From the NCBI GenBank assembly GCA_026400835.1, contig JAPLOA010000087.1, forward strand, positions 186,001-250,000: DNA of 64,000 nt. The letters are read 5' to 3'. Of this stretch, positions 42,477 through 60,051 are shown piece by piece. Position numbers and translations under genes: made by a program. Below the pieces are notes generated by a model, which was not told the DNA's origin, did no database searches, and worked only from the letters and a program-made list of their open reading frames with translations. Each line of letters opens with the position of its first letter. Within the stretch, counting starts at the first letter, position 1. Source of the stretch: Planctomycetales bacterium. Lineage in GTDB: Bacteria > Planctomycetota > Planctomycetia > Planctomycetales > Planctomycetaceae.

Positions 42477-42548
42477 ATCCCAACCCGAAGCGTCAGCGAG
42501 GGATCGATGCGTTGCGCAAAATCCCTCACTGACGTTTCGGGCTGGGAT
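42477..42548. repeat. Dispersed palindromic repeat, family A, copy 2
   Basis: Arms of 28 bases at 42477-42504 and 42521-42548 pair at 25 of 28 positions. The words CGTCAGCGAGGGAT and ATCCCTCACTGACGTTTCGG match the copy at 19921-20006, but the spacer is shorter (16 against 32 bases). It lies between the SecA-like gene and the Hsp70-type gene. The rest of 42386-42615 holds no gene. Confidence 0.85.
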
Positions 42549-42615
42549 TTCAATGCATGGGAACATCGGGAAGTTATTCCGGCTACTGACCAGAATCTCA
42601 CTCTGCCCCCATCGT

Positions 42616-44550
42616 TTATCTTACGCTCCTCAGCAGGGAGTCACGAGCAATATCTCGCCGAAGCATGTTAACGCGAGCTGCATATTGCTGACGCTCGGCC
42701 GCCGCCTGAATTCGGTACAGTTGCGAGCTGAAATCTGCATGAACTTCCGCATTCTGGTCGGCTTCCCGGCATAAAGCATTCGCCAGCCACGGGCCGTATT
42801 GAGCCACCAGCGTGTCTTCGGCTGAAACCAATATCTCCGCTGACCCAGGATCTCCCTGCCGTGCGCAGCGGCCAATGAGCTGCCGATCCATACGTCCCGA
42901 GGTCTGGCATTCCGTCACAATCACATGCAAACCACCGCGTTGTCGCACGTCGTCATGCAGTTCAATATCTGTACCGCGTCCTGCCAGGTTGGTAGCAATC
43001 GTGATTGCCCCCGTGTGCCCGGCCTTGCTGATGATTTCCGCTTCGTCCGCGTTCTGAATTCCGTTCAGCAATTCAAAAGGAACATCGTGTGATTCCAGCC
43101 CACGCGCCAGCATCTCACTGTCAGAGATCGAACGAGTTCCGATCAGGACAGCGCGCCCCTGGTTGCGACACGAGATCGCAGCTTCGATCACAGCCGCATT
43201 CTTTGCAGCAGCCCTGGAAAAGAACCGCGTCGAATAAACTATTCGCTGAGAAGCCACACGCAGAGGGATCTCCTCAATCTCCAGACTGTAGACATCGTGA
43301 AGCTCTCGTTCACAACCAACTGCGGTACCAGTCATGCCGGACAGATTTTCGTAGAGACGAAAAAATCGCTGGCGAGTCACCTGCGCGACCGAGTATTTCT
43401 CGGCCACGATATTCAGGTCCTGAGATGCCTCAATCGCCTGATGCAAACCATCCTGCCACGATCGATCTTCGAAAATGCGTCCGGTCGTCTCATCGACAAT
43501 TCGAACTTCACCGTTCTTAACGACATAATGCACATCTCGAAGAAACAGATAGCGGGCACGCAGGGCCTGCTGCACATACTCCGTCCATGGCCGAACCAGT
43601 TGCAGAACCGGAATCGCCACATCCTCGGCATAACATCGCCGCACTCCGGCTTCCGTCAGAGCAATGCGACCGGTAGAAGTCTCCAGCACGAATTCTTCGC
43701 CCAGTTTCAGATGCTCAGCCAGAGCCTTTGCTGTCAGATGAGCATCCGCATCCTGCGCGCGGTCATTGGAACCGAAGCTCAGCACCAGCGGAGAACTCGC
43801 ATCGTCAATGAGAACGCTGTCGGCTTCGTCCACGACCGCATAAATAAGACCGCGCTGCATCGTCATTCGTTGCGAAGAGGACGCCGGATCAAGCTGCCGC
43901 AGTAACCGTTCTCCCGGGCGTTCCTGAGCCTGCTGCCGCAGCGTGAGCTGATCCCGCAGATAATCGAAGCCGAATTCATGGCCCGTTCCGTACGTGATAT
44001 CAGCATCGTAGGCCGGCGTCTTCCTGACGGCATCTGTTCGTTCAGGCAGCAACGCCACGGTCAATCCCAGCCTCACCGCCACAGACGCGGCAAGTCGTTC
44101 ATCGCGCTCCGCCAGATAGGTGTTCGGCGTGATTACATGGACACCTCGCCCGGCCATCGCAAGGTGGATCGCCGCCGTCAGCGCCACAAAGGTCTTGCCT
44201 TCGCCGGTCTGCATTTGAGCGATACAGCGACGAGACATCGCCATGGCCGCGATCAACTGCACATCGTAGAGGCAGATTCCCCTGGATCGTCGGAGTGCTT
44301 CGTAAGCCAAAGCCAGCCCCGCGACCAGCAAATGAGGTTCGGATGGACGATGCCCCCGCGCGAGTTCTCGACGAACCTCGCCAACTTCGCCAATCAACTG
44401 CGATTCCGAAGCGGACTCCAGCGATTTCGCCAGCGCGCGGATATGAGGGATCAGTTCGCTGGAATTTGCATTCGCCAGAGTTTTGGCAACACGGCTTTCG
44501 GAGAGAGCGTTCCCGGACGATTCGACTGCCTTCGCAGTTCGCCTGAACAT
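42616..44550 (-). CDS. SecA-like motor ATPase lacking the C-terminal helical domains
   Basis: 644 residues against about 830-950 for SecA. Nucleotide-binding domain 1 is clear: YDVQLIAAMAMSRRC then QMQTGEGKT (Walker A), ITPNTYLAERDE, GTGHEFGFDYLRD and VVDEADSVLIDDA (Walker B). The preprotein-binding region follows, then domain 2 with ATNLAGRGTDIEL and RQLIGRCARQGDPGSA. The protein stops about 65 residues later, so the helical scaffold, the two-helix finger and the zinc-binding tail of true SecA are absent. It starts three bases after the TolC-type gene, which implies translational coupling. A role in export of a dedicated substrate is inference; it is unlikely to be the housekeeping SecA. Confidence 0.85.
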   Translation of the reverse strand: MFRRTAKAVESSGNALSESRVAKTLANANSSELIPHIRALAKSLESASESQLIGEVGEVRRELARGHRPSEPHLLVAGLALAYEALRRSRGICLYDVQLIAAMAMSRRCIAQMQTGEGKTFVALTAAIHLAMAGRGVHVITPNTYLAERDERLAASVAVRLGLTVALLPERTDAVRKTPAYDADITYGTGHEFGFDYLRDQLTLRQQAQERPGERLLRQLDPASSSQRMTMQRGLIYAVVDEADSVLIDDASSPLVLSFGSNDRAQDADAHLTAKALAEHLKLGEEFVLETSTGRIALTEAGVRRCYAEDVAIPVLQLVRPWTEYVQQALRARYLFLRDVHYVVKNGEVRIVDETTGRIFEDRSWQDGLHQAIEASQDLNIVAEKYSVAQVTRQRFFRLYENLSGMTGTAVGCERELHDVYSLEIEEIPLRVASQRIVYSTRFFSRAAAKNAAVIEAAISCRNQGRAVLIGTRSISDSEMLARGLESHDVPFELLNGIQNADEAEIISKAGHTGAITIATNLAGRGTDIELHDDVRQRGGLHVIVTECQTSGRMDRQLIGRCARQGDPGSAEILVSAEDTLVAQYGPWLANALCREADQNAEVHADFSSQLYRIQAAAERQQYAARVNMLRRDIARDSLLRSVR

Positions 44551-44553
44551 AAC

Positions 44554-47397
44554 TCAGAATCCATTTCCAAATGAATGTCCGCCGACATGGTTGGCTGGCT
44601 TCTGCGAAGCTCGTTTTACCGCTTTGGGACGTTCACCCACCGGCTGAGTCCAGGAAACCGGAAGCTGATTACTGGCCGCTTCTGTAGGCAGAGCCAGTTC
44701 TTCGGCACCGGGCAAAGTCGCGACTCGCATTTGTCGGGCATCCGCTTCGTTCGCGGTCTGTTCAGCGCGGGACGTCATCCATTCTGTTTCGCTGTTCTCC
44801 AGCTCCGGAGCATCATAACGCGACCGCAGCATTGTCCCGGTCGCACGTCGGAGTTGAATAATTGATAGCGAGTAAGAGGTTTGTGCCTGAGCAAAAGCCG
44901 CCTCTTCATCCGCCAGACGCTCGTAGCCATCCAGAAGGTCTTCGAGCAGCAGGATTGATGATTCTTCGACATTGGGCAGAACATCGAACCGGTCCTGAAG
45001 GTAGCTCACTTCATTCTGAGCCGCCACCATCGCCTGATACTTCCCAAGCAACTCACGCCAGGCCGTGTCAACTTCACGACTGGCGATTTCGACTTCTGTC
45101 AGCGACGTTTCGACGGTCGCCTTGAAGCTGTTAATCGCACGTTTGAGTTCCCACTGACGTTGTTCAACCTTAGCCTTCGCCGCGCGGTTTCCAAGCGGAA
45201 CTTCGAATTCCATCCCGACGGTATAACCCGGTCGTCCCTGAGTAAACTGATTGTTGAACGAGTCGACAAACTGAGCTTTGTTCTCAAGTCCGGCCACGTA
45301 GGAACTGACGATAAAGTCCAGCTTGGGCAGCATTTCGCTCTTGCTGACTCCCATGCGAACACCGGATGCCCGCATCTGTCGAATCGCACGAGAAATATCC
45401 GGACGATTGACCAGAGCTTCCTGCAGAGATTCGCGCAACCCCACTGGCAATGGAACCATGCTCGGAACTTCCATCGGAGTGAATTCGACAGCACCGCCAT
45501 TCAGCATTTCGGGATCATTCACCAGCAGACGCAACTGAGATTCCGCGTTACGAATATCTGTGACAGCTCGCTGCATTCTTGATTCGGCACGAGCAACGGC
45601 AGCACGAGCACGCAGGATCTGACGCGGAATTGTGTCGACTCCGTGACGTCCTTCCAGTGTCGTCAGAACCTTCTGAGCAGACGACAGCAGCTTCTGACGC
45701 TGGAAGAATTCGGCACGAGCTCCGTAGAGTTTCCAATACGCTTCGGCAACACCGTACAGATGTCGCTGTAACTCTTCGAGTGTTTCATCACCTGATGAAC
45801 TGGCATTGATGCGTGCGAGAACAATCTGGCTCTGGTTGTACGCAACGCCCGACTGGCTCATCAACGGTTGTCGGAAGCTGAGTTCGAGTCGTGATGTGGA
45901 CTGGGGATTAGGAAGCAGGAAGCGAGAGTTGTTTTGCTGATATCCGAATTGCTGCGACAACTTCACTTCACCGCCCGCTGTCGTTCGGCGTTTCAACCCG
46001 CCAGACGACACGGTATGACGATCCTCGAAACGATTATCGTTGTTACCTGTTGTCAGAGTGTTCCCAATGGGATCGTTCAGGTCGTCATACTTGGCATTCA
46101 GGAATGTTCGCCAATCGAAGGTCGCTTCTTCCTGCTTCACAATTCGATGCTGGACTTCTGGATCCGCCTGAAGCACCTGAACCTGCGATGAATAGATCAG
46201 TGCCTGCTGAACCAGCGTCGTCACATCGACTGAAATTGAACGCGGCGCGATTCCAGCTCGCTGCTGAACCAGACTATCCCACCACGCACTGAAGTTTTCC
46301 GGAACCACGACGGAAGGAGCGGGAGTTGGCGATTGTTCAACGCCAGCTGGCAGCATTCCCGTACGGCCCATGTACGGACCGATCCAGTTTGGAGCATCAG
46401 ATTCGACGGTGGCTCGAAAGCCTGAAGTGCCCGGAGCTGGTCCTCGCCCGGAACCTCGCGGCACGGGTACAGATGCGGATGCTGCGTTGGTCGATGACCG
46501 AACCGGTGCAGTTTTCGAGCCGGGTGGCAGTTCGACAGGATCCTCTGAACCGTTGACCGACGGTACCGTTGGAACGGGTGTGGATGGCTTTGAGTCCACA
46601 TCAGACGCGTTTGGAATTGCCAGAGCTCCTGAATCGCCGTCCTGGAGGTTCGCTGCATCCTGTAATCCTGCGAGACGAGTCGATCGGCCAGGCATACTCC
46701 CAGAAGTTCCCGGCACCGCCGCGCTGACAGAACCTCGCTGTGAACTTCCTCTTTGTGGCAAAGAGGCGACCCCTGACGCCCCGACATAGTTGTAGCCTTG
46801 TCCCTGCTCTTGTCCCTGACGGCTGTTCGATGCACCACCGGCGAGACCTGAATGCCCGGCGCGAAGTGCTGGCATAGTCGAGCCGTGACCACCAGACGTA
46901 TCTCCAACAGCGGATGTGCTCGCTGCGCCGTTGACAGGAACGCCGTGGCGAGAAGCTCCGAAGACAGGAGCCTGCAGAACTCCACGTTGGCCGGCCGTTG
47001 CAGAGTTCGCAGGAGCCGAAGATGCGGGGGCAGGACTACGTCGAACAGGAGGAGCAACCATTGGCCGAAAAGGAACGGTTTGAACGGCTGTGTCTTTTCC
47101 TCGGGGGCTAATAACCATCCCGGAATCGTCGCTGGTCATGTCTGCATTGGTCATGTCTGCATTGGACTCTTGCAGGCCCATCGTTGAGGACGTCGCGTAC
47201 GAATCCGACACAACCTGAGCAGCGGATAATCCCATCCGGGCTGGCAACAGAGTTGTCGTCGCCATTGAGGCAATGGCGGCCGAGGCGAGAAGCGTTGCGG
47301 TTCTCCGCTCTTCAAGGCATTTGCGAAGCCATGTCACCAGTGTCGAGCACCGGGCAGTGGCTTCGGGGTTGCGGTTTTCCGGAGATGCTTGAGACAT
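44554..47397 (-). CDS. TolC-family outer-membrane protein with long low-complexity N-terminal region
   Basis: About 947 residues, twice the usual TolC length. A signal-like segment (TATLLASAAIASMATTTLL) is followed by about 280 residues rich in Ser, Pro, Ala, Gly and Gln with no fold visible, then (from about 380) the outer-membrane-efflux domain: VDVTTLVQQALIYSSQVQVL, LELSFRQPLMSQSGVAYNQ, long helical repeats, VNRPDISRAIRQMRASGVRM and YTVGMEFEVPLGNRAAKAK. TolC proteins form trimeric channels for type I secretion or efflux. No HlyD or ABC partner is adjacent. A 15-base tandem duplication (47134-47163) repeats NADMT. Start 47397 is chosen over 47514. Divergent from the giant protein. Confidence 0.85.
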   Translation of the reverse strand: MSQASPENRNPEATARCSTLVTWLRKCLEERRTATLLASAAIASMATTTLLPARMGLSAAQVVSDSYATSSTMGLQESNADMTNADMTSDDSGMVISPRGKDTAVQTVPFRPMVAPPVRRSPAPASSAPANSATAGQRGVLQAPVFGASRHGVPVNGAASTSAVGDTSGGHGSTMPALRAGHSGLAGGASNSRQGQEQGQGYNYVGASGVASLPQRGSSQRGSVSAAVPGTSGSMPGRSTRLAGLQDAANLQDGDSGALAIPNASDVDSKPSTPVPTVPSVNGSEDPVELPPGSKTAPVRSSTNAASASVPVPRGSGRGPAPGTSGFRATVESDAPNWIGPYMGRTGMLPAGVEQSPTPAPSVVVPENFSAWWDSLVQQRAGIAPRSISVDVTTLVQQALIYSSQVQVLQADPEVQHRIVKQEEATFDWRTFLNAKYDDLNDPIGNTLTTGNNDNRFEDRHTVSSGGLKRRTTAGGEVKLSQQFGYQQNNSRFLLPNPQSTSRLELSFRQPLMSQSGVAYNQSQIVLARINASSSGDETLEELQRHLYGVAEAYWKLYGARAEFFQRQKLLSSAQKVLTTLEGRHGVDTIPRQILRARAAVARAESRMQRAVTDIRNAESQLRLLVNDPEMLNGGAVEFTPMEVPSMVPLPVGLRESLQEALVNRPDISRAIRQMRASGVRMGVSKSEMLPKLDFIVSSYVAGLENKAQFVDSFNNQFTQGRPGYTVGMEFEVPLGNRAAKAKVEQRQWELKRAINSFKATVETSLTEVEIASREVDTAWRELLGKYQAMVAAQNEVSYLQDRFDVLPNVEESSILLLEDLLDGYERLADEEAAFAQAQTSYSLSIIQLRRATGTMLRSRYDAPELENSETEWMTSRAEQTANEADARQMRVATLPGAEELALPTEAASNQLPVSWTQPVGERPKAVKRASQKPANHVGGHSFGNGF

Positions 47398-47865
47398 GGA
47401 CGGTTTCAGATCCGAATCAGATGATCGACCTGGAATTGCGGACGGTCTTGAGATCGCCAGCACAATGTCGGTATCTGAAGGGATCGTCACAGGTGTTAAA
47501 ACCCATCCAGCCAAATGCGAATCTGTACACTCGGATTCCGAGGACTATTCGACACGAGCCGACAATCCTGCCTGTCTTACCCGCTTGAACGGGAAAGGTT
47601 TTCCTACGGCAGATTCTGCCGATTTTTCTCAGCGAATCGATTCGGCATTCCTGCGTTCTGCAGTGGTTGTAACCAGCAGAGTGATTGCACCAGTCATGCC
47701 ATAAGGTTCATTTTAGGAATCATGAGGGAGTCAGGTGGACTCTGCAGTCTGTGACCTAGGTTTGAGAATGCCGTATTGCGCCGGTTCTGGCCGGTGCTGC
47801 GCGTCCAGCGGAATGTTCGCTTCCCGCCGGCAACCTGAAAGTGGTTCATATTTCGGATTGTCTCC
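47398..47865. promoter_or_regulatory. Divergent intergenic region between the TolC-type and giant-protein genes
   Basis: 468 bases separating two divergent genes, so both promoters should be here. An in-frame extension of the TolC gene could start at 47514. I see no strong inverted repeat or promoter consensus, and no convincing extra gene. Confidence 0.4.
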
Positions 47866-50800
47866 ATGGTATTCCGTCGCCGCAAATTGACTGATCGAGT
47901 CCAGACTGTCGTGGATGAAGTTCTGCACCTGTTGCAGCAAGAGACACAGTCAGGATTTCAACATCAGGCCGTCTCTGTGCTTCAGGCTGCGCGTCTGGAA
48001 GAGCGAATTCTGATGAGCGCATCGCCGATGGCCCTTGTGGCGGAAGGCGCGGTTCAGGCGGTCGAGGCCAGCGTTGCCTTGATGGAATCCGGCGTGGACT
48101 TCTCCGCAGAGACAGAAGTCGATTTCGAGTTGCCGGGTCACGAGAAGGTTGCGTCCGACAGCGTTACGTCCGACGGTATCACTGACGAGGGATACAACGC
48201 AGTTTCTGCCGATGCCGAAGGACAGCTGGAGCCAAATTCGGAAGCAGGGGATCCGGGTTCCGACGAAACCTCTGGGCCTGAACTGATTGTGATCGACTAT
48301 CGAGTTCAGGATGCGGATACCCTTCTGGAAAGTCTGTTGCGCGATGGCCGAGATGTTCGGCTGCTGCGGCTGGATGCGGACTCTGACGGGCTCAGTCAGA
48401 TCACGAACAAGCTTGAGCAGATTGGAGACGTTTCGGCTATCCACTTGTTGACTCACGGTCGAGACGGAGAAATCCTGCTTGGCTCGACACATCTGAATTC
48501 CACAACTCTCGCCCAGCATGCGCCGGAACTGCTGGCATGGCAGCATTCTCTTACGGCCAATGCCGACCTGTTGATCTACGGTTGTGACGTCGCAGAATCG
48601 ATTGAAGGCCAGGACTTTCTTGATTCGCTGAGTGCTTTCACAGGAGCCGATATAGCAGCCAGCACCGACTCCACCGGAAGTCTCGCAGAATCCGGCGATT
48701 GGATTCTGGAATACACCGCTGGAAGGATAGAGCATCCGGGAATCTTCTCTGCCACCGTCATGGATCATTGGCAGTACTCGCTGCCAGCGGGAGGAACCAT
48801 TACGGTCACAACAACGAATGACGTGGTGGATGGCACGGTCACATCGATTGCAGCATTGATCGCGAACAGAGGCTCCGACGGAAGAATTTCTCTGCGTGAA
48901 GCCATTCTTGCGGCCAATGCCAACGATGATGTGGATGAGATTATGCTTACGGCCGGTGAGTACCGTATCCAGATCACAGGCAAAGATGACTCCGGGCTCA
49001 AAGGTGACTTTGACATCTCAGAAGGTGTGACGATTCGCGGAGTTGGCTCAGGCACAACCATCATCAATGGTGGTTCCATTGATCGAGTCTTTGATCTCCG
49101 CGGCAGTGCGTCCGCGACTGTGATCGGCGTGACGATTACCGGCGGCAATACAACGGAAGACGGTGGAGGACTGCGGGTCTCGAGGAATGCTGCGTTGACA
49201 CTGAGTCAGGCCGCTGTCTCAGGAAACTCGACAACTCGAAAGGCCGGAGGACTCTTTAATGATGGAACCACGACTCTGACCGACGTTTCGATCCTTGGAA
49301 ACAACTCCGGTTCCGACGGCGGGGGCATCAACAATTCAGGCGCCCTTAACCTGACGAATGTGACAATCGCGGGCAACACGGCAAATCGCGGTGGTGGTCT
49401 GGATCATGATGGAGCGGGCAGCACGCTTGAGATGACAAGCGTGACGGTCAGTGGCAATACCGCGACGACTCAAGGCGGCGGCATTTATGCAGGACGAGAG
49501 GCATCGCTGCTGAATGTAACGATTGCCAACAATGAAGCCGGAACAGCCGGAGGAGGAATTTTTGTTCATTCCTCAGCGAGCTCATTCACAATTCGCAATA
49601 CGCTCTTGTCGGGCAATAAGTTGACTGACGGGACATCTGCCAACGTCTCCGGCACGGTTTCCTCATTGGGAAACAATCTGGACAGTGATGGCACGGCAGC
49701 CCTGGATCAATCGTCGGATCTTTCCGGAGTGGATCCGCAATTGCAGCCGCTTTCAAACAATGGCGGTTCGACGCAGACGAATGCTCTTTCGCTCAACAGT
49801 GTTGCCATTGATGCAGGATCAACAACGGCAGCACCGACAGTGGATCAGCGTGGTTTTGCTCGCGATCAGGCCGCGGACATCGGGGCCTATGAGTTTGATC
49901 AAGCCTTTCTGACGATCAGTCAGTTCAACGCCAACACCACAACGAGTGCGGATCAGGTGACATCAGCGGAGACTCGCGGCAGTCAGAATTCGATCGCCCG
50001 TGACAATTCCGGAAACTATATCGTCGTCTGGAGCAGCAATTCTCAGGACGGTTCCGGGTGGGGTGTTTACGCTCGCCGTTTTAATGCCAACGGTCAACCG
50101 CTGACGGGTGAGTTTCGAATTAACAGTGTGACTTCAGACAATCAGCGGTGGGCCAGTGTTGCGGCTGACAGCAAAGGCAATTTTGTTATCACATGGACCA
50201 GCACCAATCAGGATGGAACGGGCCAAAGCGTTTACGCCCGTCGCTATTCGGCGGCAGGAGTCGCTCTGAGTGGTGAGTTTGTGGTCAACACAACCACAAC
50301 CGGCATTCAGAAGAACTCAGCGATCTCGATGAATTCTGCCGGACAATTTATCATCGCATGGCAGGGGGAAGGCCCCGGAGACAGCTCCGGAGTTTTCTTC
50401 CGTCGATATGCTGCGAATGGAACAGCAATCGATACCACGGATAAAAGAGCGAACGCCTCATCGACTGGCACGCAGATTAATCCCGGGGTCGCTATTGATG
50501 GCACCGGAAATATAGTGGTCCTCTGGCAGGACTCAGCGAAACTGTATTTTCAGCGAATCCTGACGAGCGAAAGTGATATCAACAGCATGTCCGGAACGTG
50601 GAGCACTGCCAGGGTTCAGATTGACAGCATGGTTTCCACCAGTGATGTGCCAGCTCTGGCCATGGATGCTGCAGGAAACTTCACAGTCGCCTTTCGCGAG
50701 CAGACCAATCTGCCGGGTATCTGGGTGAAAGGGTTTAATGCAAACGGAACGACGAAGTATGCCTCGTTTCAGGCCGCCAGTGGATCTGCAACGAGTCCAT

Positions 50801-53800
50801 CCCTGGCGATGGCCGCCGACGGCCAGTTTGTTTTAAGCTGGCAGAATACCGGGGATGGTGACGGAACAGGGATTTACGCGAGGAAATACCTCGCCAACGG
50901 TTCCGCAAATGGAGCCGCCTTTCAGGTCAATCAGGACACGACCGGGAATCAGACCCAATCTTCACTGACAATGATTGATCCGGACAACTTTGTTGTCGTC
51001 TGGTCCGGAGCCTCCGCCACTGACACGTCCGGGATCTCCGTTCGCCAATACGGAACGGGTATCCCGCAAACCGTGCTGGCTCAGAACGATTATGTGACGA
51101 CAGCGACGAACACGAGTATCAGCATTGAGGCTCTCAATAACGACTCACGCTCCGCCGACGGAGTCGCCATAATTCTGGATGTTTCAGATCCGGCGAACGG
51201 AACAGCCGCCGTTTCGACAGACGGGACAATCTCTTACACGCCGAATACAGCGTATGCCGGGGACGATTCACTGACCTATCTGATCTCCGATGGCGAAGAC
51301 GGGACATCTCATTACTGGAGCCTTGGGGGAAACGCGGTTGATTCCGTCGGGAGTGCTCACGGAGTGCTCAACGGCACCACGACTGTTGCCGGCAGCTTTG
51401 GGACGGCCTTACAATTTAATGAGACTTCCGACTACATTCGTATACCAGACTTTGCGTACACGCCTTCGTTTACGGTCTCGTTCGATTTCAGGATTGACGA
51501 CAATACCGGATCAGTGAGGCAGTATCTTTACAGCCATGGAACATGGTCCGAGGCAAACTCGCTGCAGGTTTTGCTGGGAGAATCGGGATCTGGCGGGGAT
51601 GCGAACCTGCTGAAAACCTTTTTGAACGACACGAACGATGTCCACAGTACGACGGTGCTCAACACAAATATTGCTTCTCTGATCGGCGACGGTCAATGGC
51701 ACACTTATACCGTGGTCGTTGACAAGGCAATGGGAACAAAGGTCTATATTGATGGCACGCTGCGTGTCTCTGCCGCGACTCGAGGCGGAGATGCGTTTAA
51801 CCCCACTGGTGATCTTCACCTTGGAGTTCGATCGGACATGAACTCCGCGCGATACTACGGAGGTCAACTCGACTCGGTCCGAATCATCAATCGAGCATTA
51901 TCCGTGCCTGAAGTCGGGGCATTGAATACGGGGAACTCACCTTCGGACGGTTCGACGCAGTCCACAGCAACTGTTTATGTAACAGTCCGGAATGCCGCTC
52001 CCGTTGTCGCCATCAACGGACCGTATCAGACCAGTGTCGGTCTTCCTGTCACGTTCACGGGAGCCGGAACCAGTGATCTGGATAACGACACGCTGACCTA
52101 CGAATGGGACCTCGATTACGACGGCGTTTCATTTCAGGCTGACGCAACCGGCATGACTGTAACGAAATCATGGGACGAACTTCAGGCGGACGGTTCGCTC
52201 ATCGGCACGAACAGTATTGCATTGAAGGTTACGGACTCCCGTGGTGCGGAGACGCTTGCGATTTCAACACTTCAGGTCTCCCCCAATGCGGCTCCAACGG
52301 CTCTTTCGTTGAGCAATTACGTAGTTCCCGGAGTACAGCCAGGGGCTGTGGTGGGGACCTTGACAACGACGGACTCCACCACCGGCGACAGTCATACCTA
52401 TACGGTTACCGACAATCGTTTCGAGGTCGTTTCAGGCCAGTTGAAACTTAAGGCGGGGCAATCAGTGAATCGAGACACTGAGACGTCTGTTTCGATGAGC
52501 ATTACAACGACAGATCTCGCCGGTAATCAATTGATACGTCCCTTTGTGCTTACAGTCGGCCATGGCTCGATTGTCGCTCGTAACAACAGCGGCACAACAA
52601 ACGAAAACACGCCTCTGATAGTTTCGGCTCCGGGCGTTCTGGGCAACGATGATGTACCGTCCGGAGTAATCACATCAGGTGCACTTCTCGACTTCAACGC
52701 CGCGCAGGACACCAATGGGGACACGATCTGGCAGAACTCCACGGCGGCCTCCGGTTTTGGACTCAGCCTGGGATCGGGCGTCACACGAAACGCAGTGACG
52801 CCGAGCAATCACTATGGAATTCTGTCATCTTTTGACTTCAATGGGGCTGCCACTTCCGGAGCTTACAGTAGTTTGCCCGTGGCGTCCCTTCCCGGCAATC
52901 CCACCGATGGTGGCGGAACGCTGGAACTGTGGTTCCGTCCGGATGAATTGACAAAGAAGTATATTCTGATCGATTCGGGAACTGCACGCCCAGGCACTGG
53001 CCTCTCACTGCGACTCAATGGAACTCAGCTGGAGTATGTCGTCTATTCCGGGACTGCTGAAGTCGTCGTGACCTCAGACATCAGTGCGCAGCTTGCTGCG
53101 GGAGACTTTGTGCAGTTTGCGGGGACCGTAAGTCTGAACGCCGGAGTGGCCTCGATCGAAATGTTTGTCAACGGCGTTTCCGTTGGCACTGACACGGCCT
53201 CCGGGTTTACCTCCTGGTCTGACGTCACAGAAAACTTTGCGCTTGGCAATATTGATGGATCAGCCAGTGTCTTTTCAGTCCCTGGTGCGGATCCATTCGC
53301 CGGGGAAATGGCAGTCTTCCGATTCTACGACACAGCATTGTCGAGTACTCAGACCCTGAACAACTTTAATGCTGTCGCAGGAGCTCAAGCCGGGATTACC
53401 GTCACATCGACAGACACGACGACGGATTCAACGCGGGGAACCGTAACCGCGGAAGCTAACGGTTCTGTCACATACAACCCTTTCACACAATTTGAGTCTC
53501 TGACCGCGGGAGCGACAGCCACAGATTCGTTCCGATACACGGTTTCGGATGGCAACGGAAACACGGATACAGCGCGTGTTACGGTGACCATTACCGGCGT
53601 CAATGACGCACCAGTGCTGGCTACCGCAGCAAAGTCGCTGGGCTCGATTGTCGCCAATACCACCTCGTCAGCCGCGACAGCAGGAAGTCTGCTGGGTGCT
53701 ACGGTTGCCGATGTCGATACGGGAGCATTGTCAGGAATTGCGGTGACGGGCACGACCGGGGCTGGCATCTGGCAATACTCAACCGACGGTACGACCTGGG

Positions 53801-56800
53801 TAAATTTCGGCTCGGTCTCTGCCAATAGTTCGCTGCTTCTGCGATCAACGGATCAGATTCGATTTGCCGGAAGCAGTACAAATGCGGGGACGGCCACGAT
53901 CACATACGCAGCGTGGGATCAGTCAACCGGAACAGCCGGAGCCAGGGTTGATCTGGCAGTCACAGGTCGAGGCGGCACAACGGCGTGGAGCACGAATTCT
54001 GATAATGCCACGTTAACTCTGAACAGTGTTAATCCTGCTCCCACAGCGACGTCTGACAGCTACACACTGCCTGAAGATACGACACTCTCAACCGGAGTTC
54101 CCGGATGGTTCAACAACCAATGGACAACGCGTCAGAGACTGACGTTCAACAATGGGGTGGGCACAGAGCTGACCAATCAGGCAGTCCTTGTCACACTTGA
54201 CGCCGAGAGAATTGATTACTCAAAGACGTTGAACAACGGCCAGGATCTGAGATTCGTCGACGGTGATGGAACGTTACTGGACTATGAAATCGAGTCATGG
54301 GACGAATCAGGAACCTCGCGAGTCTGGGTACGAATTCCTCAGATCGACGCGGCATCGAACGCCGATTTTGTCTGGATGTACTATGGAAATTCCGGCGCTG
54401 CGAATGTTCAGAACTCCGGAGCTGTCTGGACCAATCAGGAAGCTGTTCTGCACATGAACGGCACCCCGGTTGACTCTTCCTCGAATGCCCTCACCGTCAC
54501 AACTTCGGGAGCGACAGCAATCAGTGGCATCAGTGCCTCGGCCAGTGATTTTGATGGCGTGGACGACAACATCAAGCTGGGGGCATCAACAGATCTGAAC
54601 AACATTTTCGCCAGCGGTGGGACAATTTCAGCCTGGATCAATCCGGATGGCTGGGGAGAAAATGGCTTCGGTCGAATTGCCGACAAGGCGGCCACGGTCT
54701 TAGCGAACGACGGAGGAGAAGCGGGCTGGGGTCTGCAGGTTACTTCAAACGGAGCGATTCTCTTCAATCATGGTTTCGGGACGACGCGAGGGCAATGGAG
54801 GACCAACAATGGAGTCATCACCCTGAGCGGTGACTGGTACCAGATTGCTCTGGTTTACAATGCGGGGACACCGACGACCGATCCACAGGTTTTCATTAAT
54901 GGCGTGCAGGTCGCAGTGACAGAGACTCTCACGCCATCGGGATCGATGCTCAACGATTCGTCCCTGCAACTCACGATCGGCAACCATGCGGCCGCCACAA
55001 CGAGGACGTTCGATGGCGCGATTGACGAATTCCGAGCTTCCCGAACATCGCTGACATCTGCGCAGGTCCTGGCGGACTACCGCTCCATGACGGGAACATT
55101 CACGACGATCGGTACGGCAGAAGCCGGTCCGACGGGAGTTCTGAGAAACGATAGTGATCCCGATGGCGACACTCTCTCTGTTGCTTCCTGGACGAATCCG
55201 ACTCGCAGTCAAGCCTTCACGATGAACAGCGATGGCACGTTCTCTTATACACCGCAGGCAAATTTTAATGGCACAGATTCGTTTACTTATCGCCTCACCG
55301 ACGGCACCAGCATCCTTGCCCCGGTGACGGTCACATTGAACGTACAATCTGTGAACGATGCACCTGCGGCAGTGAATATTTCCAGCAGTTCATTTGCGGG
55401 ATGCACGAACGCCGCGGTCGTCGGCAATGTCACCGTCACTGACCCCGATGCGGGAGATACTCACACGATTACGGTCAGCGATTCCCGCTTCGAAATCGTT
55501 TCCGGACAATTGAAACTCAAGTCAGGCCAGCAGATCAATCCGACTGCCGAACCAGCGGTAACCCTGGATCTTGTGGCGACTGACTCCAGCGGAGCCAGCA
55601 GACGTGTCACAACGACGCTGACCACAATTGATGTTAATACTTCGCCAGCTCTTTCCATCACCACGGTCACATCATCTGTGACGGAGAACTCCCTGATTGG
55701 TACCGCCGTTCACCTTGCATCGATTTCAATCAGCGATGACGGTATTGGCACAAACAACCTGACTCTGAGTGGTGCGAATGCGGGTCTGTTTGAGTTGATC
55801 GGACAGGAGCTCTTCCTGAGAGCCGGAGCAATTTTCGATCATGAAACATCCGCAACAGTCGACGTGATGATTGAAGTCGATGACCCGGCGTTTGCAGGTT
55901 TTCCGGATGATCGAAAAGTCTTTTCTTTCGCCATTCACAACGTGAATGAGAATCCGGTTACCTACGGCATCCTCAACGCCTCCATCGATGAAGACGCGGG
56001 ACTCCACTTCATCAGCACGGCATCCAGCTTCTTTGATCCGGATCGGGAGCCGCTGACCTTTGAAGTAACGACAGTCAGCCAGACGACAGGGCTGTTGAAC
56101 TCTGTCAGCATCAATACCAGCACCGGTGTTCTGTCAATGCGGTCGGAAGCAAACGCATTCGGAACCGCTGTGATCAGGGTCACAGCGACTGATGCAGCGG
56201 GCCTTTCTGTTGCTTCTCAGTTCACGTTCAGCGTAATCGCCGTCAATGATGCGCCAGTTGTAAGGAGTTATTCGGGCGAGACGTTTTCGGGGCAGCCGCT
56301 GACAATAACTGCTCCGGGACTCCTTGTCGGAGCCACTGATGTGGACAACGATCCGATTTCAGCAGTACTGATTGAGGGGCCCTCTAACGGCACTGTGACA
56401 TTGAGGCCGAATGGCCGCTTTGCGTACACTCCAGCGACGGGCTTCTTTGGAACAGACAGCTTTCAGTTTGCCGGCTTTGATGGTCAGGCCACTGGATCTA
56501 CCGTGACTGCCAGCATTTTCGTCCAGGCTCCATTTATCGGGAGCGGATCCTCAGGAACGTCGTCTTCAACCAGAAGTACGACGACGACGACGACGCCTGC
56601 GACGCCTGCGACCGCAACAACGACATCGACCACAGCCGCTACGTCAACCGCGTCGACGGCTTCCAGCTCCGGTGGCAACGCTAACATTACCACCGCACCA
56701 GCAGGCATTACGGCGACAAGAAACAACAACAGGAGTTCTGATGACGAAGACATTTTGTTGATCGTTGGAGCACTTCAAAACAGGAACTCCGACGAAGACG

Positions 56801-57336
56801 AGATCGTAGGCGTAATGCCACAGGTGCAGATTCAGGAAAACGATGAGGGCGGGAAACTTGTCGGCGTTTCACTTGCGAGCTCATCGGGAACTAATCGAGA
56901 AGGCTTTCGGCGATTCTCATTCGGCGAGCCGGGCCGTGGCAATCTCGCGGCTTCGTCAAAACTCTGGGACACTCAGACAGCGCTGACTGCGCAGGAGTTG
57001 CAACGTCAGGAGTTTTACCGCGAACTCGCAGCTCGCGCTGAAGAGCAAATTGACTCGTTTGAGAAGAAACTTAGTCGCAATGTCAGCATGGAAGGGCGAG
57101 TTGTCGGGTCTGTTGGAGTCGTCACAACCGGATTCTCTGTTGGCTATCTGATCTGGGCTGTTCGCGGAGGAATGTTGCTGTCGGGCGTCCTCTCACAGAT
57201 TCCCGCCTGGACGATGCTCGACCCTTTGATGGTGATTGATGGCGAAGGCAAAGATGACGACAAAGAATCCCTGCAGACGATTATGGATCGCGAGCAAGCC
57301 CGTCTGAACAAAGCTTCACCGCCGCCAAAGACCTGA
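47866..57336 (+). CDS. Giant surface-type protein: LEPR-XLL, DUF4347, beta-helix, Ig-like, LamG and DUF2341 modules
   Basis: 3156 residues. There is no ordinary signal peptide; instead an LEPR-XLL-type motif (RLEERILMSASP, about 42-53) follows a basic start. Then: DUF4347 (about 138-300), a right-handed beta-helix with LREAILAAN and a choice-of-anchor-Q end at GAYEFD (about 340-677), repeats with YIVVWSSNSQDGSGWGVYAR (about 705-1063), Ig/cadherin-like domains interrupted by LamG-like modules (about 1145-1355, 1605-1842 and 2188-2405) and a DUF2341 module (about 2081-2188), and further cadherin-like domains to about 2890. A Thr/Ser-rich linker follows, and a membrane segment (VGVVTTGFSVGYLIWAV, about 3081-3100) lies near the C-terminus. 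Probably a surface adhesin or matrix protein; ligand unknown. Confidence 0.9.
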   Translation: MVFRRRKLTDRVQTVVDEVLHLLQQETQSGFQHQAVSVLQAARLEERILMSASPMALVAEGAVQAVEASVALMESGVDFSAETEVDFELPGHEKVASDSVTSDGITDEGYNAVSADAEGQLEPNSEAGDPGSDETSGPELIVIDYRVQDADTLLESLLRDGRDVRLLRLDADSDGLSQITNKLEQIGDVSAIHLLTHGRDGEILLGSTHLNSTTLAQHAPELLAWQHSLTANADLLIYGCDVAESIEGQDFLDSLSAFTGADIAASTDSTGSLAESGDWILEYTAGRIEHPGIFSATVMDHWQYSLPAGGTITVTTTNDVVDGTVTSIAALIANRGSDGRISLREAILAANANDDVDEIMLTAGEYRIQITGKDDSGLKGDFDISEGVTIRGVGSGTTIINGGSIDRVFDLRGSASATVIGVTITGGNTTEDGGGLRVSRNAALTLSQAAVSGNSTTRKAGGLFNDGTTTLTDVSILGNNSGSDGGGINNSGALNLTNVTIAGNTANRGGGLDHDGAGSTLEMTSVTVSGNTATTQGGGIYAGREASLLNVTIANNEAGTAGGGIFVHSSASSFTIRNTLLSGNKLTDGTSANVSGTVSSLGNNLDSDGTAALDQSSDLSGVDPQLQPLSNNGGSTQTNALSLNSVAIDAGSTTAAPTVDQRGFARDQAADIGAYEFDQAFLTISQFNANTTTSADQVTSAETRGSQNSIARDNSGNYIVVWSSNSQDGSGWGVYARRFNANGQPLTGEFRINSVTSDNQRWASVAADSKGNFVITWTSTNQDGTGQSVYARRYSAAGVALSGEFVVNTTTTGIQKNSAISMNSAGQFIIAWQGEGPGDSSGVFFRRYAANGTAIDTTDKRANASSTGTQINPGVAIDGTGNIVVLWQDSAKLYFQRILTSESDINSMSGTWSTARVQIDSMVSTSDVPALAMDAAGNFTVAFREQTNLPGIWVKGFNANGTTKYASFQAASGSATSPSLAMAADGQFVLSWQNTGDGDGTGIYARKYLANGSANGAAFQVNQDTTGNQTQSSLTMIDPDNFVVVWSGASATDTSGISVRQYGTGIPQTVLAQNDYVTTATNTSISIEALNNDSRSADGVAIILDVSDPANGTAAVSTDGTISYTPNTAYAGDDSLTYLISDGEDGTSHYWSLGGNAVDSVGSAHGVLNGTTTVAGSFGTALQFNETSDYIRIPDFAYTPSFTVSFDFRIDDNTGSVRQYLYSHGTWSEANSLQVLLGESGSGGDANLLKTFLNDTNDVHSTTVLNTNIASLIGDGQWHTYTVVVDKAMGTKVYIDGTLRVSAATRGGDAFNPTGDLHLGVRSDMNSARYYGGQLDSVRIINRALSVPEVGALNTGNSPSDGSTQSTATVYVTVRNAAPVVAINGPYQTSVGLPVTFTGAGTSDLDNDTLTYEWDLDYDGVSFQADATGMTVTKSWDELQADGSLIGTNSIALKVTDSRGAETLAISTLQVSPNAAPTALSLSNYVVPGVQPGAVVGTLTTTDSTTGDSHTYTVTDNRFEVVSGQLKLKAGQSVNRDTETSVSMSITTTDLAGNQLIRPFVLTVGHGSIVARNNSGTTNENTPLIVSAPGVLGNDDVPSGVITSGALLDFNAAQDTNGDTIWQNSTAASGFGLSLGSGVTRNAVTPSNHYGILSSFDFNGAATSGAYSSLPVASLPGNPTDGGGTLELWFRPDELTKKYILIDSGTARPGTGLSLRLNGTQLEYVVYSGTAEVVVTSDISAQLAAGDFVQFAGTVSLNAGVASIEMFVNGVSVGTDTASGFTSWSDVTENFALGNIDGSASVFSVPGADPFAGEMAVFRFYDTALSSTQTLNNFNAVAGAQAGITVTSTDTTTDSTRGTVTAEANGSVTYNPFTQFESLTAGATATDSFRYTVSDGNGNTDTARVTVTITGVNDAPVLATAAKSLGSIVANTTSSAATAGSLLGATVADVDTGALSGIAVTGTTGAGIWQYSTDGTTWVNFGSVSANSSLLLRSTDQIRFAGSSTNAGTATITYAAWDQSTGTAGARVDLAVTGRGGTTAWSTNSDNATLTLNSVNPAPTATSDSYTLPEDTTLSTGVPGWFNNQWTTRQRLTFNNGVGTELTNQAVLVTLDAERIDYSKTLNNGQDLRFVDGDGTLLDYEIESWDESGTSRVWVRIPQIDAASNADFVWMYYGNSGAANVQNSGAVWTNQEAVLHMNGTPVDSSSNALTVTTSGATAISGISASASDFDGVDDNIKLGASTDLNNIFASGGTISAWINPDGWGENGFGRIADKAATVLANDGGEAGWGLQVTSNGAILFNHGFGTTRGQWRTNNGVITLSGDWYQIALVYNAGTPTTDPQVFINGVQVAVTETLTPSGSMLNDSSLQLTIGNHAAATTRTFDGAIDEFRASRTSLTSAQVLADYRSMTGTFTTIGTAEAGPTGVLRNDSDPDGDTLSVASWTNPTRSQAFTMNSDGTFSYTPQANFNGTDSFTYRLTDGTSILAPVTVTLNVQSVNDAPAAVNISSSSFAGCTNAAVVGNVTVTDPDAGDTHTITVSDSRFEIVSGQLKLKSGQQINPTAEPAVTLDLVATDSSGASRRVTTTLTTIDVNTSPALSITTVTSSVTENSLIGTAVHLASISISDDGIGTNNLTLSGANAGLFELIGQELFLRAGAIFDHETSATVDVMIEVDDPAFAGFPDDRKVFSFAIHNVNENPVTYGILNASIDEDAGLHFISTASSFFDPDREPLTFEVTTVSQTTGLLNSVSINTSTGVLSMRSEANAFGTAVIRVTATDAAGLSVASQFTFSVIAVNDAPVVRSYSGETFSGQPLTITAPGLLVGATDVDNDPISAVLIEGPSNGTVTLRPNGRFAYTPATGFFGTDSFQFAGFDGQATGSTVTASIFVQAPFIGSGSSGTSSSTRSTTTTTTPATPATATTTSTTAATSTASTASSSGGNANITTAPAGITATRNNNRSSDDEDILLIVGALQNRNSDEDEIVGVMPQVQIQENDEGGKLVGVSLASSSGTNREGFRRFSFGEPGRGNLAASSKLWDTQTALTAQELQRQEFYRELAARAEEQIDSFEKKLSRNVSMEGRVVGSVGVVTTGFSVGYLIWAVRGGMLLSGVLSQIPAWTMLDPLMVIDGEGKDDDKESLQTIMDREQARLNKASPPPKT

Positions 57337-57426
57337 GATCTGCAGAGCAATTGCAATGTGATGAATTGTCTGGCTGATGATGGCTCCTGAGAACGACAAT
57401 ACTTTCCGGTACCAGAAGTTCTGAAA

Positions 57427-60051
57427 ATGAAAAACCTGACTGCTGCCTCAAGAATTACAATCGGCCTCGTGTGTTCGATGGTCGGGATCCTGATCACAGC
57501 CAACTTTCTGGGCCTGCTTCCCGACCAGAAAGTCGTGATCACTCAGGGACGTGCGCAGTTGACGGAGTCGCTGGCATTCAGCACCTCTTTACTGCTGTCC
57601 AACGATGACCGAACGGGGATCGAGCAGATTCTTAGCAATGTGGCGACTCGACAAAAACAGGTCCGCAGCCTTGGCGTTCGCCGCGCTGACGGTGTTTTGG
57701 TCGTGACAGTCGGCGAACACGACGCATTGTGGCCCGCGACGATGGGTGACAATTCCAACGCCAGTTTTATGCAGGTGCCTTTGTCTCACACACCAGAGGG
57801 CATTTGGGGCAAACTGGAAGTCAGCTTCCTGCCACTCGACTCCGGCCGTTGGTACGCGTTCCTCGAGAATGCTCAGTTGCAGCTGCTGCTTTTTGTCGCG
57901 GTCTCGGGATTCTTTTCATTCCGTTTGTTTCTGAGATTTGTACTGAAGAATCTGGATCCATCACGAGCAGTCCCTCGACGTGTTCGAGAAGCTCTGGACA
58001 TCCTGAACGAAGGACTCATGATCGTCAGTCTGGATGATCGAATTCTGCTGGCCAACAATGCCCTGGCCAGGACTGCAAGTTGTTCAGCTGACTCGCTCGC
58101 TGGTCGCAAAGCAGGCGAGATGAGTTTGAAACGGACCGACAGTTCAACAACCATGCCGTGGACGGAATGCGGTCTTGCCGAGCGGCCCGTTTCAGGAGTC
58201 ACGATGGACTTTGTCGACCCGTCCGGCGAAAAACAAATTTTCAAAGTCAATTGTTCCCCGCTGTTTGGTAATGAAGGCAAAATCCGCGGCGTCATGGTTT
58301 CTCTGGATGATGTGACTCAGCTGGAGAAGAATAAAGTTGATCTGAAGGTCGCTAAAGACGAGGCTGACGCGGCGAATAAAGCCAAAGGCGACTTTTTGGC
58401 CAACATGAGCCATGAGATACGAAACCCGATGAACGCAATCGTCGGCTTTACAGACATTCTCCGGCGTGGTCTCGAAGAATCGGAAGCTACGCGAACAACC
58501 TATCTCGACACGATTCATGCCAGCGGTACTCACCTGGTGGAGCTGATTAACGACATTCTTGACTTTTCCAAGATTGAAGCCGGAAAGCTGGAACTCGAAA
58601 TCCGCGAATGTAGTCCGTATCAGTTGATGAATGAAGTCGTCAACGTGTTGCGTATGAAGGCCGAACAACAGTCATTGAGCCTTTCGATCAACCTGCGTGG
58701 TGCCATCCCGGAAACAATTCAGGCTGACCCAACGCGCCTGCGTCAGATCCTGATGAATCTGGTGGGCAATGCGATTAAGTTCACGGCAGAAGGCGGTGTC
58801 CGGATTGTGGCCAGTATGGAAGATAAAAATGGCCAGCCCTTTCTGCGGTTTGAAGTCACCGACACCGGTATCGGCATGACCCCGGAACAGATAGGTCGAC
58901 TGTTTCAGGAATTCATGCAGGCGGACTCATCGGTCACTCGTCGCTTCGGCGGAACAGGGCTGGGGCTTGCCATCAGTAAACGGCTCACCGAAGCAATGGG
59001 CGGGCAGATTGCGGTCCGAAGCGAGCCGGGGGTGGGAAGCACATTCTACTTTTCCATCGCGACCGGCGATCTGTCCGGCGTTCCGATGCTGGATACTGAC
59101 ACCGCCTCGGAGAAATTCCGTTCGGCAGCTCGCAGCAAACAGCATGGTCTCAGAGTCTACTTCAAGACTGCGAGAGTCCTGATCACGGACGACACACCTG
59201 CCAACCGTCAACTGGCAGGACTCGTTCTGCGGAAAGCCGGATTGACTGTCGACGAGGCAGAGAACGGTGCCATTGCGGTCGAAAAAGCCAGCCGCGGCAA
59301 TTATGACCTGCTGTTGATGGACATGCAGATGCCTGTGATGGACGGTTTCACAGCCACACGGACCCTACGTGACCAGGGTTTAAAAACGCCAATTCTGGCA
59401 TTCACGGCCAACGTCATGGAACAGGATCGCCAGCATTGTGTCGCTGCGGGCTGCTCCGGATTCCTGACGAAACCGATCAACATCGATTTGCTGTTGAGCA
59501 CGATCGCGGAATACCTCGAAACAACCGATGCGCCGCCTGAACTTCCCGCACCGATCGAGCATCCTGCTTCGAGCAACCGCATGACAATGGTCGACGCAAC
59601 TCCGTCTGCTTCAACATCCATCACTGGAGATTCGCTGGATGAGATTCTCGATCAGTTGCCAGGAGTCGCCGGGATCCCGGGTCTCGATCGAAACCAGCCC
59701 CTCGATTCAGACTCAGGAAGAGAGTTTCGCAATACGGTCCGAAGACCAATTCACTCCACTCTGCCACTGGACATTCCGGAGTTCCGCGAGATCGTCGATT
59801 CGTTCGTTGGTTGTATTGATGACACAATGCTGAGTCTGCGGGCGGCTCAGGTCAGAATGGATTATCAGGAAGTCCGCGAAATCGCTCATCGCCTGAAAGG
59901 CACGGGAGGAACAGTGGGCTTCGCTGCCTTTACAGAACCATCGCACAAGCTTCAGCTCGCAGCCGAAGAAAGTGATGACGCCACTGTTGATGCAATGCTT
60001 CTGGAACTGGAAGAAATCAGTTCGCGAATCGAATTGCCGGCGGAGGTTTGA
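57427..60051 (+). CDS. Hybrid sensor histidine kinase with receiver and Hpt domains
   Basis: 874 residues. Two membrane helices (about 10-30 and 147-170) enclose an extracytoplasmic sensor of about 115 residues. A PAS domain (about 190-300) follows, then HisKA with the phospho-acceptor His in NMSHEIRNPMNAIVGF (about 327), HATPase with NLVGNAIKF, DTGIGM and GGTGLGLAISK, a receiver domain (acidic pair LITDD, phospho-acceptor Asp in LLLMDMQMPVMDG about 632, Lys in FLTKP), and a C-terminal Hpt with His in HRLKGTGGTVGF (about 820). All phosphorelay residues are present. It starts 90 bases after the giant-protein gene in the same direction, so it may sense the surface or control that locus; inference. 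Confidence 0.93.
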   Translation: MKNLTAASRITIGLVCSMVGILITANFLGLLPDQKVVITQGRAQLTESLAFSTSLLLSNDDRTGIEQILSNVATRQKQVRSLGVRRADGVLVVTVGEHDALWPATMGDNSNASFMQVPLSHTPEGIWGKLEVSFLPLDSGRWYAFLENAQLQLLLFVAVSGFFSFRLFLRFVLKNLDPSRAVPRRVREALDILNEGLMIVSLDDRILLANNALARTASCSADSLAGRKAGEMSLKRTDSSTTMPWTECGLAERPVSGVTMDFVDPSGEKQIFKVNCSPLFGNEGKIRGVMVSLDDVTQLEKNKVDLKVAKDEADAANKAKGDFLANMSHEIRNPMNAIVGFTDILRRGLEESEATRTTYLDTIHASGTHLVELINDILDFSKIEAGKLELEIRECSPYQLMNEVVNVLRMKAEQQSLSLSINLRGAIPETIQADPTRLRQILMNLVGNAIKFTAEGGVRIVASMEDKNGQPFLRFEVTDTGIGMTPEQIGRLFQEFMQADSSVTRRFGGTGLGLAISKRLTEAMGGQIAVRSEPGVGSTFYFSIATGDLSGVPMLDTDTASEKFRSAARSKQHGLRVYFKTARVLITDDTPANRQLAGLVLRKAGLTVDEAENGAIAVEKASRGNYDLLLMDMQMPVMDGFTATRTLRDQGLKTPILAFTANVMEQDRQHCVAAGCSGFLTKPINIDLLLSTIAEYLETTDAPPELPAPIEHPASSNRMTMVDATPSASTSITGDSLDEILDQLPGVAGIPGLDRNQPLDSDSGREFRNTVRRPIHSTLPLDIPEFREIVDSFVGCIDDTMLSLRAAQVRMDYQEVREIAHRLKGTGGTVGFAAFTEPSHKLQLAAEESDDATVDAMLLELEEISSRIELPAEV

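What the first reader, a model, noticed from the sequence alone, without database searches (positions are those of the whole stretch)
42616..60051. Candidate export-and-control locus for a giant LEPR-XLL surface protein
A TolC-family protein and a truncated SecA-like ATPase (three bases apart) are divergent from a 3156-residue LEPR-XLL/DUF4347 protein that has no normal signal peptide, and a hybrid histidine kinase follows it. No HlyD, ABC exporter or SecYEG gene is nearby. Seen directly: gene order, spacing, domain motifs. Known: giant DUF4347 proteins are often linked to type I secretion parts. Inferred: a SecA-like motor plus TolC could serve this substrate in a way not described.
Basis: partly seen in the sequence, partly recalled or inferred. 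Interest (0 to 1): 0.72.

Follow-up and report, generated by a model that had tools for sequence, protein, structure and literature searches.

The report
SecA-powered export of giant proteins
A planctomycete gene cluster pairs a cut-down SecA motor and an outer-membrane channel with a giant surface protein, and comparison with other bacteria suggests that this little-studied secretion system exports giant proteins that carry a short conserved start signal instead of a normal signal peptide.

Summary
In detail: short SecA (644 aa), a TolC-family gene three bases away, the divergent 3156-aa DUF4347 giant and a hybrid kinase. The missing HlyD parts exist: a HlyD/GAF-HlyD/M50-HlyD set lies on another contig of the same genome. 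A secondary SecA_DEAD/HlyD/M50/OEP module was published in 2015 with its substrate unknown; my searches found no later paper naming one. Comparison now points to a substrate. In 150 genomes of the order, DUF4347 and this M50-HlyD type co-occur (42 genomes both; 10 and 4 one only). DUF4347 giants lie within 10 kb of 15 of 39 window-type short SecA genes, against 0 of 41 housekeeping SecA genes. On 11 of 12 plasmids, and in Aidingimonas, Achromobacter and a Cloacimonadota genome, a giant sits beside or inside the SecA/HlyD/M50 genes. The giants begin with a basic stretch and a LExR-hLLSA motif. The M50-HlyD partner has a PqqD-like domain and an intact HExxH. Best reading: an ABC-free, SecA-driven, type I-like exporter for giant proteins. 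Export itself is untested. Against it: 24 of 39 class A loci show no DUF4347 giant nearby, and three congeners keep the short SecA but lack DUF4347 and this M50-HlyD type.

The parts
42616..44550 (-). Short (secondary) SecA, 644 aa: both motor domains and the cross-linking domain; C-terminal part absent
   Evidence: aligns to residues 24-575 of B. subtilis SecA and 27-611 of a 786-residue SecA2 chain
44554..47514 (-). TolC-family outer-membrane protein, longest ORF; likely start ATG 47397; long Ser/Ala/Gly/Pro-rich N-terminus before the OEP part
   Evidence: a TolC match lies within 10 kb of 33 of 39 class A SecA loci
47866..57336 (+). Giant surface-type protein, 3156 aa: the proposed substrate
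47995..48036 (+). Proposed export signal LEERILMSASPMAL (residues 44-57) after a basic N-terminus
48283..48780 (+). DUF4347 domain; invariant His197 and Cys240
57100..57240 (+). C-terminal hydrophobic module ending in DPLMVI, shared by class A giants (approximate ends)
   Evidence: 5 giants; 2 more
57427..60051 (+). Hybrid histidine kinase (PAS, HisKA, HATPase_c, REC, Hpt), possible regulator
   Evidence: follows the giant also in G066 (91% identity) and G094 (65%), the two congeners checked

Best explanation
The locus is the split form of a SecA-driven, ABC-free, type I-like secretion system whose cognate substrates are giant proteins with a basic N-terminus and a LExR-h-LLSA motif. Proposed working, with status: (1) the N-terminal motif is recognised, most likely by the PqqD-like domain of the M50-HlyD membrane protein (domain homology shown, binding inferred); (2) the short SecA, which keeps the motor domains but lacks the C-terminal part of SecA, acts as ATPase and feeds the chain N-terminus first into a pore of the M50-HlyD protein (inferred); (3) HlyD-type adaptors and the TolC-family channel carry it across periplasm and outer membrane (inferred from domains and linkage); (4) the M50 site, and in class A the His/Cys DUF4347 domain next to the motif, may remove the leader or release the protein (residues shown, cleavage inferred); (5) a conserved C-terminal hydrophobic module of class A giants probably keeps them attached to the cell (module shown, role inferred). 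Here SecA, TolC, giant and kinase are on C52 and the HlyD/GAF-HlyD/M50-HlyD set is on C53.
For: Co-occurrence of DUF4347 and class A M50-HlyD in 150 genomes: 42 both, 10 and 4 single, 94 neither; 0 of 20,000 within-genus shuffles reach 42. Within 10 kb: DUF4347 giant at 15 of 39 class A short SecA loci against 0 of 41 housekeeping loci, TolC 33 against 0, HlyD or M50 23 against 1. Plasmids: giant ORF upstream on the same strand at 11 of 12 short SecA loci, 0 of 3 full-length ones. All 8 plasmid giants whose N-termini I fetched carry the motif. Among 50 genomes LEPR-8K occurs in 6, all among the 15 with M50-HlyD. In Cloacimonadota the giant lies inside the gene set, SecA-ORF-HlyD-giant-GAF-HlyD-M50. 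HExxH in 21 of 21 M50-HlyD proteins; PqqD match and homology.
Against: No experiment. 24 of 39 class A loci have no DUF4347 giant within 10 kb; some end at contig edges, others do not. G038, G040 and G109, congeners of the window, keep class A SecA but show neither DUF4347 nor class A M50-HlyD. Ten genomes have DUF4347 without class A M50-HlyD and four the reverse. Class B SecA (28 loci) has a motif giant in only 7. One Achromobacter set with a LEPR giant and M50-HlyD shows no SecA in the 20 kb read. The window motif is under the NF012209 cut-off.
Confidence: 0.68

Rival explanations
1. The giant leaves by an ABC-driven type I system or another route encoded elsewhere; the short SecA module exports something else and the linkage reflects a shared surface-protein island.
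For: Three congeners keep short SecA without DUF4347 and class A M50-HlyD. Giant RTX adhesins do leave by ABC systems elsewhere, e.g. ArtA (PMC9430717, passages). I did not search the genome for ABC exporters.
Against: Co-occurrence holds within genera; giants sit beside or inside the gene set in unrelated arrangements; a shared N-terminal motif in the giants of several phyla.
Confidence: 0.15
2. The short SecA works with the housekeeping SecYEG as an accessory SecA2, and only the outer-membrane step uses the HlyD/TolC parts.
For: The closest solved sequence is a C. difficile SecA2, and SecA folds are the top structural matches.
Against: The protein lacks the C-terminal part of SecA, where SecA engages SecY (recalled); no hydrophobic signal core precedes the motif; no SecY row among the window ORFs scanned.
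Confidence: 0.12
3. Chance or ancestry: neighbours kept together without functional link.
For: Many class A loci show no giant; with the loose giant criterion the planctomycete excess is modest, 27 of 67 against 6 of 41.
Against: Within-genus shuffles, housekeeping controls with specific criteria and independent gene orders in other phyla.
Confidence: 0.05

Closest known systems
Secondary SecA_DEAD module with type I secretion-related proteins (Kamneva, Poudel and Ward 2015, PMC4452313)
   Same: SecA_DEAD without SecA_SW; HlyD, GAF-HlyD and M50-HlyD partners; OEP in some loci; in some genomes the parts are unlinked
   Different: That paper gives no substrate, signal or PqqD-like domain in the sections I read; here giants with a shared N-terminal motif are tied to it
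Type I secretion system (HlyB/HlyD/TolC)
   Same: HlyD-type adaptors and a TolC-family channel; giant surface substrates occur in both
   Different: SecA motor and M50 membrane protein in place of an ABC transporter; the proposed signal is N-terminal, not C-terminal
SecA2 / accessory Sec systems
   Same: A second SecA dedicated to special surface proteins
   Different: The SecA here lacks the C-terminal part; no second SecY was seen among the ORFs scanned; outer-membrane parts are linked
LEPR-XLL (NF012209) and Planc_extracel (PF07595) proteins
   Same: Short N-terminal motif on very large proteins
   Different: The window giant scores 14.9 bits against a cut-off of 17 for NF012209; no export route is tied to either in the papers I saw

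Membership tests
Secondary SecA_DEAD / type I-related module (PMC4452313) | SecA_DEAD protein without SecA_SW | tested here: met
Secondary SecA_DEAD / type I-related module (PMC4452313) | HlyD, GAF-HlyD and M50-HlyD partners | tested here: met
   Present in the genome on another contig, not adjacent; the GAF match of the own copy is weak (E 0.09). The paper reports unlinked cases.
Secondary SecA_DEAD / type I-related module (PMC4452313) | Groups with that paper's SecA sequences | not tested
   Its sequences were not at hand; the tree here separates housekeeping SecA from short SecA
Secondary SecA_DEAD / type I-related module (PMC4452313) | Component-dependent export of a substrate | not testable with these tools
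   needs a bench test
Type I secretion system | ABC transporter encoded with HlyD and TolC | tested here: not met
   No ABC row in the 18 window ORFs scanned; the whole genome was not searched for ABC exporters
SecA2 / accessory Sec | SecA with scaffold and wing domains, SecY partner | tested here: not met
   C-terminal part absent; NCBIfam SecA2 models match far under their cut-offs
LEPR-XLL (NF012209) | Score over the cut-off of 17 bits | tested here: not met
   Window 14.9; own-genome L046 15.8 and L047 16.0; G114 relative (L061) 17.9
DUF4347 (PF14252) | Score over the cut-off of 24.6 bits | tested here: met
   168.5 bits
PqqD-like domain on M50-HlyD | PF05402 match | tested here: inconclusive
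   Met in L100 and L101; no row at E up to 1 for the own-genome copy, whose N-terminal region in an alignment of five class A copies is homologous to the proteobacterial ones (98.5%)

The most novel reading that the evidence does not exclude
Short SecA, M50-HlyD, GAF-HlyD, HlyD and TolC form a distinct ABC-free secretion system of planctomycetes, proteobacteria and Cloacimonadota, dedicated to giant proteins. It reads an N-terminal LExR-hLLSA leader through a PqqD-like domain fused to an intramembrane protease and threads chains of up to about 10,000 residues N-terminus first with a minimal SecA motor.
Probability: 0.45. Interest if true: 0.88.

Novelty: new variant of a known kind. Interest (0 to 1): 0.75.

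Why it matters
How giant proteins without signal peptides leave the cell is open in planctomycetes and elsewhere, and the 2015 secondary SecA module has had no known cargo. Joining the two gives each its missing half, with a defined short signal and a candidate receptor, and makes both questions testable by single-gene deletions in laboratory strains. If true, a SecA motor replaces the ABC transporter in a HlyD/TolC-type conduit.

Tried and rejected
Considered and set aside: a two-gene SecA-TolC system without adaptor (an adaptor set is on another contig); a plain SecA2 system; the DUF3731/Hsp70-like neighbour 39437-42385 as a part (a relative follows the adaptor set in 1 of the 12 loci L303-L314, namely L309). 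A DUF4347 search of viral contigs, meant to deepen an alignment for a fold, found no relative, so the DUF4347 fold was not tested. Foldseek with the M50-HlyD model listed only adaptor-type proteins in the 50 rows shown of 473, so the PqqD and M50 parts rest on sequence. The SecA model is of moderate quality (mean pLDDT 70.9). With the loose giant criterion alone, planctomycete short SecA differs from housekeeping SecA only modestly: 27 of 67 against 6 of 41 (p 0.004), or 21 of 48 against 6 of 29 with both flanks at least 6 kb (p 0.03); the specific criteria carry the argument. My first ORF picker found no SecA in 5 loci and was replaced before counting. L124 is counted as full-length although its neighbours show that it belongs to the short family, which works against my reading. 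Class A in the profile was approximated by best E up to about 1e-128 plus one 97% fragment (G103). The class A loci were taken from the best-scoring matches, not at random, and the 39 include four genomes with two loci each.

Literature: all 10 searches used; several listings are capped (20 of 615, 20 of 43, 10 of 21). Seen: PMC4452313 outline with abstract, first part of the text, sections 14, 16, 17, 18; passages only of PMC2680597, PMC10868602, PMC9611531, PMC3482391, PMC10066038, PMC9430717. The library lacks most subscription papers and all bioRxiv preprints.

Full report
WHAT IS THERE. The short SecA has SecA_DEAD, the preprotein cross-linking domain and the second nucleotide-binding domain, and no SecA_SW row. 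It aligns to residues 27-611 of a 786-residue SecA2 chain and 24-575 of B. subtilis SecA; the model ends in one long helix, 605-643, and Foldseek returns SecA chains first. The missing part is where SecA carries the helical wing and two-helix finger (recalled). The TolC-family protein has two OEP stretches after a long low-complexity N-terminus. The giant has DUF4347, LamG, PKD and cadherin-like repeats. Before its motif the best 12-residue Kyte-Doolittle mean is 1.15, against 3.59 in a pilin-like window protein. The kinase follows the giant also in the two congeners checked, G066 (91% identity) and G094 (65%).

THE MISSING PARTS. In relatives the pair is often followed by a HlyD, a GAF-type HlyD and an M50-HlyD fusion. 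In the window's genome this set lies on contig C53:85594-90943. In 12 relatives whose set I fetched (L303-L314) no SecA lies in the stretches read; several of these stretches are short. The genome has three SecA genes: this one, a second short one on C112 beside another giant with a LETRSLLTA motif, and the housekeeping one on C54.

PRIOR WORK. Kamneva et al. 2015 described the secondary SecA_DEAD proteins with HlyD, M50-HlyD and GAF-HlyD partners and sometimes OEP, proposed SecA as the ATPase, and called the role unknown. It names META1p2399-2402 in Methylobacterium extorquens AM1. A 2009 genome paper reports a 15,831-residue repeat protein, META1_2412, in a genomic island of that strain (passage). 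The tags are about ten apart; I did not see the genome itself.

LINKAGE IN THE ORDER. I read 67 short SecA loci and 41 housekeeping SecA loci (counts). A tree of 113 SecA proteins puts the 23 housekeeping rows on one side of a branch (SH-aLRT 99); the short ones form class A (the window's), class B (the C112 type) and a mostly proteobacterial set. Within 10 kb, class A (39 loci): TolC 33, HlyD or M50 23, any giant ORF 18, motif giant 14, DUF4347 giant 15. Class B (28): 5, 8, 9, 7, 0. Housekeeping (41): 0, 1, 6, 1, 0 (Fisher values). Class A is the tree clade plus L051, whose SecA is split and was too short for the tree.

CO-OCCURRENCE. In the same 150 genomes DUF4347 is found in 52 and class A M50-HlyD (E up to 1e-70) in 46: both 42, DUF4347 only 10, M50-HlyD only 4, neither 94 (Fisher 6e-23). 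With labels shuffled within genera the mean overlap is 32.0 and 0 of 20,000 shuffles reach 42. Short SecA by a score cut (41 genomes) overlaps M50-HlyD in 36 and DUF4347 in 37. G038, G040 and G109, congeners of the window, keep class A SecA but have neither.

PLASMIDS AND SPECIES SCAN. Of the 60 rows listed (57 more are not listed) I took the first twelve as short SecA and read all twelve. Eleven have a giant ORF upstream on the same strand within 10 kb; the twelfth (L108) is cut by the record start and has a split SecA. Typical order: giant, [DUF3467], HlyD, M50/PqqD, SecA, with HlyD and TolC in some. Two giants are annotated LEPR-XLL. I fetched the N-termini of eight: all eight carry [LM]EPR[LYVF]LL[SAN]AD; the seven whose charges I computed have 8-16 Lys/Arg and 2-9 Asp/Glu before it. 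A scan of one genome per species kept 80 SecA loci, 9 short and 71 full-length by ORF length; three of the 9 are planctomycetes. With the plasmids, giants lie near 15 of 21 short and 4 of 74 full-length SecA genes (Fisher 1.4e-9); one of the four, L124, really belongs to the system.

CROSS-PHYLUM TEST. In 50 of those 80 genomes (10 system loci and 40 of the other 70, chosen by me) LEPR-8K hits occur in 6 and M50-HlyD in 15; all 6 are among the 15 (Fisher 3e-4). Leaving out the ten system genomes it is 2 of 5 against 0 of 35 (p 0.013). Those two are Aidingimonas halophila and a Cloacimonadota genome. In Cloacimonadota one strand reads SecA, a 533-aa ORF, HlyD, giant, GAF-HlyD, M50; in Aidingimonas TolC, two ORFs, giant, GAF-HlyD, M50, SecA, HlyD; Achromobacter piechaudii reads TolC, giant, GAF-HlyD, M50, SecA, HlyD. 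Nine of the 15 M50-HlyD genomes show no LEPR-8K hit; planctomycete variants fall under that model's cut-off.

THE SIGNAL. Twenty-four N-termini side by side have L in 23, E in 24, R in 21, L in 21 and A in 23 at the core positions. They were chosen because the motif was visible, so this describes it and does not test it. As background, a strict form occurs in 6 of 1473 ORFs of 300-1399 aa in the loci read: four are second LExR genes in class B loci, one lies in a system locus (L175) and one near a housekeeping SecA (L256). Giants of one genus (L062, L207, L209, L210) have the variant LEELLMLSA. Two giant ORFs near short SecA with a visible start lack it: L196, which begins inside the protein, and L222, a TPR-like protein.

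THE PARTNERS. M50-HlyD has HExxH in 21 of 21 sequences. L100 and L101 match PqqD in Pfam; the class A N-terminal region is homologous to that of proteobacterial copies (98.5%). PqqD-like domains bind leader peptides in other systems (recalled), hence the receptor proposal. The C-terminal half matches MexA/MacA-type adaptors. DUF4347 has an invariant His and Cys in 18 of 18 copies, which recalls caspase-like peptidases (recalled, fold not tested). Seven class A giants with visible C-termini share a hydrophobic module followed by DPL.V; the class B and proteobacterial giants whose C-termini I saw lack it.

VERDICT. The finding is real. The kind of module is known since 2015. Its cargo, signal and leader-binding domain did not turn up in my ten searches. 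LEPR-XLL appears in two papers of the library, one on a giant Vibrio protein.

Noticed in passing
window 39437-42385 (-): Hsp70-like protein with DUF3731, same strand, 230 bases downstream of the short SecA; in G082 (L309) a 48% identical protein follows the HlyD/M50 set. A dedicated chaperone is possible, but it is 1 of 12 such sets.
   Followed up: partly
window about 42478-42575: Inverted repeat between SecA and the Hsp70-like gene, terminator-like by eye
   Followed up: no
G038, G040, G109 (L049, L050, L052): Class A SecA (with TolC in two of the three) kept without DUF4347 or class A M50-HlyD; a 768-772-aa gene lies upstream, in L050 with trypsin-like and transglutaminase-like domains. 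Other cargo or a remnant?
   Followed up: partly
L044 (G000:C112): Second short SecA (class B) of the same genome, divergent from another giant with a LETRSLLTA motif; class B short SecA seems widespread in the order
   Followed up: partly
L300 (G151:C12): Achromobacter: LEPR giant next to M50-HlyD and HlyD-type genes, with no SecA in the 20 kb read
   Followed up: no
L079, L080, L081 (G000): Three more HlyD/M50-HlyD sets in the window's genome, with no SecA in the stretches read
   Followed up: no
L098, L100, L101, L117, L119: A small DUF3467-type protein encoded beside the HlyD genes, often right after the giant
   Followed up: no
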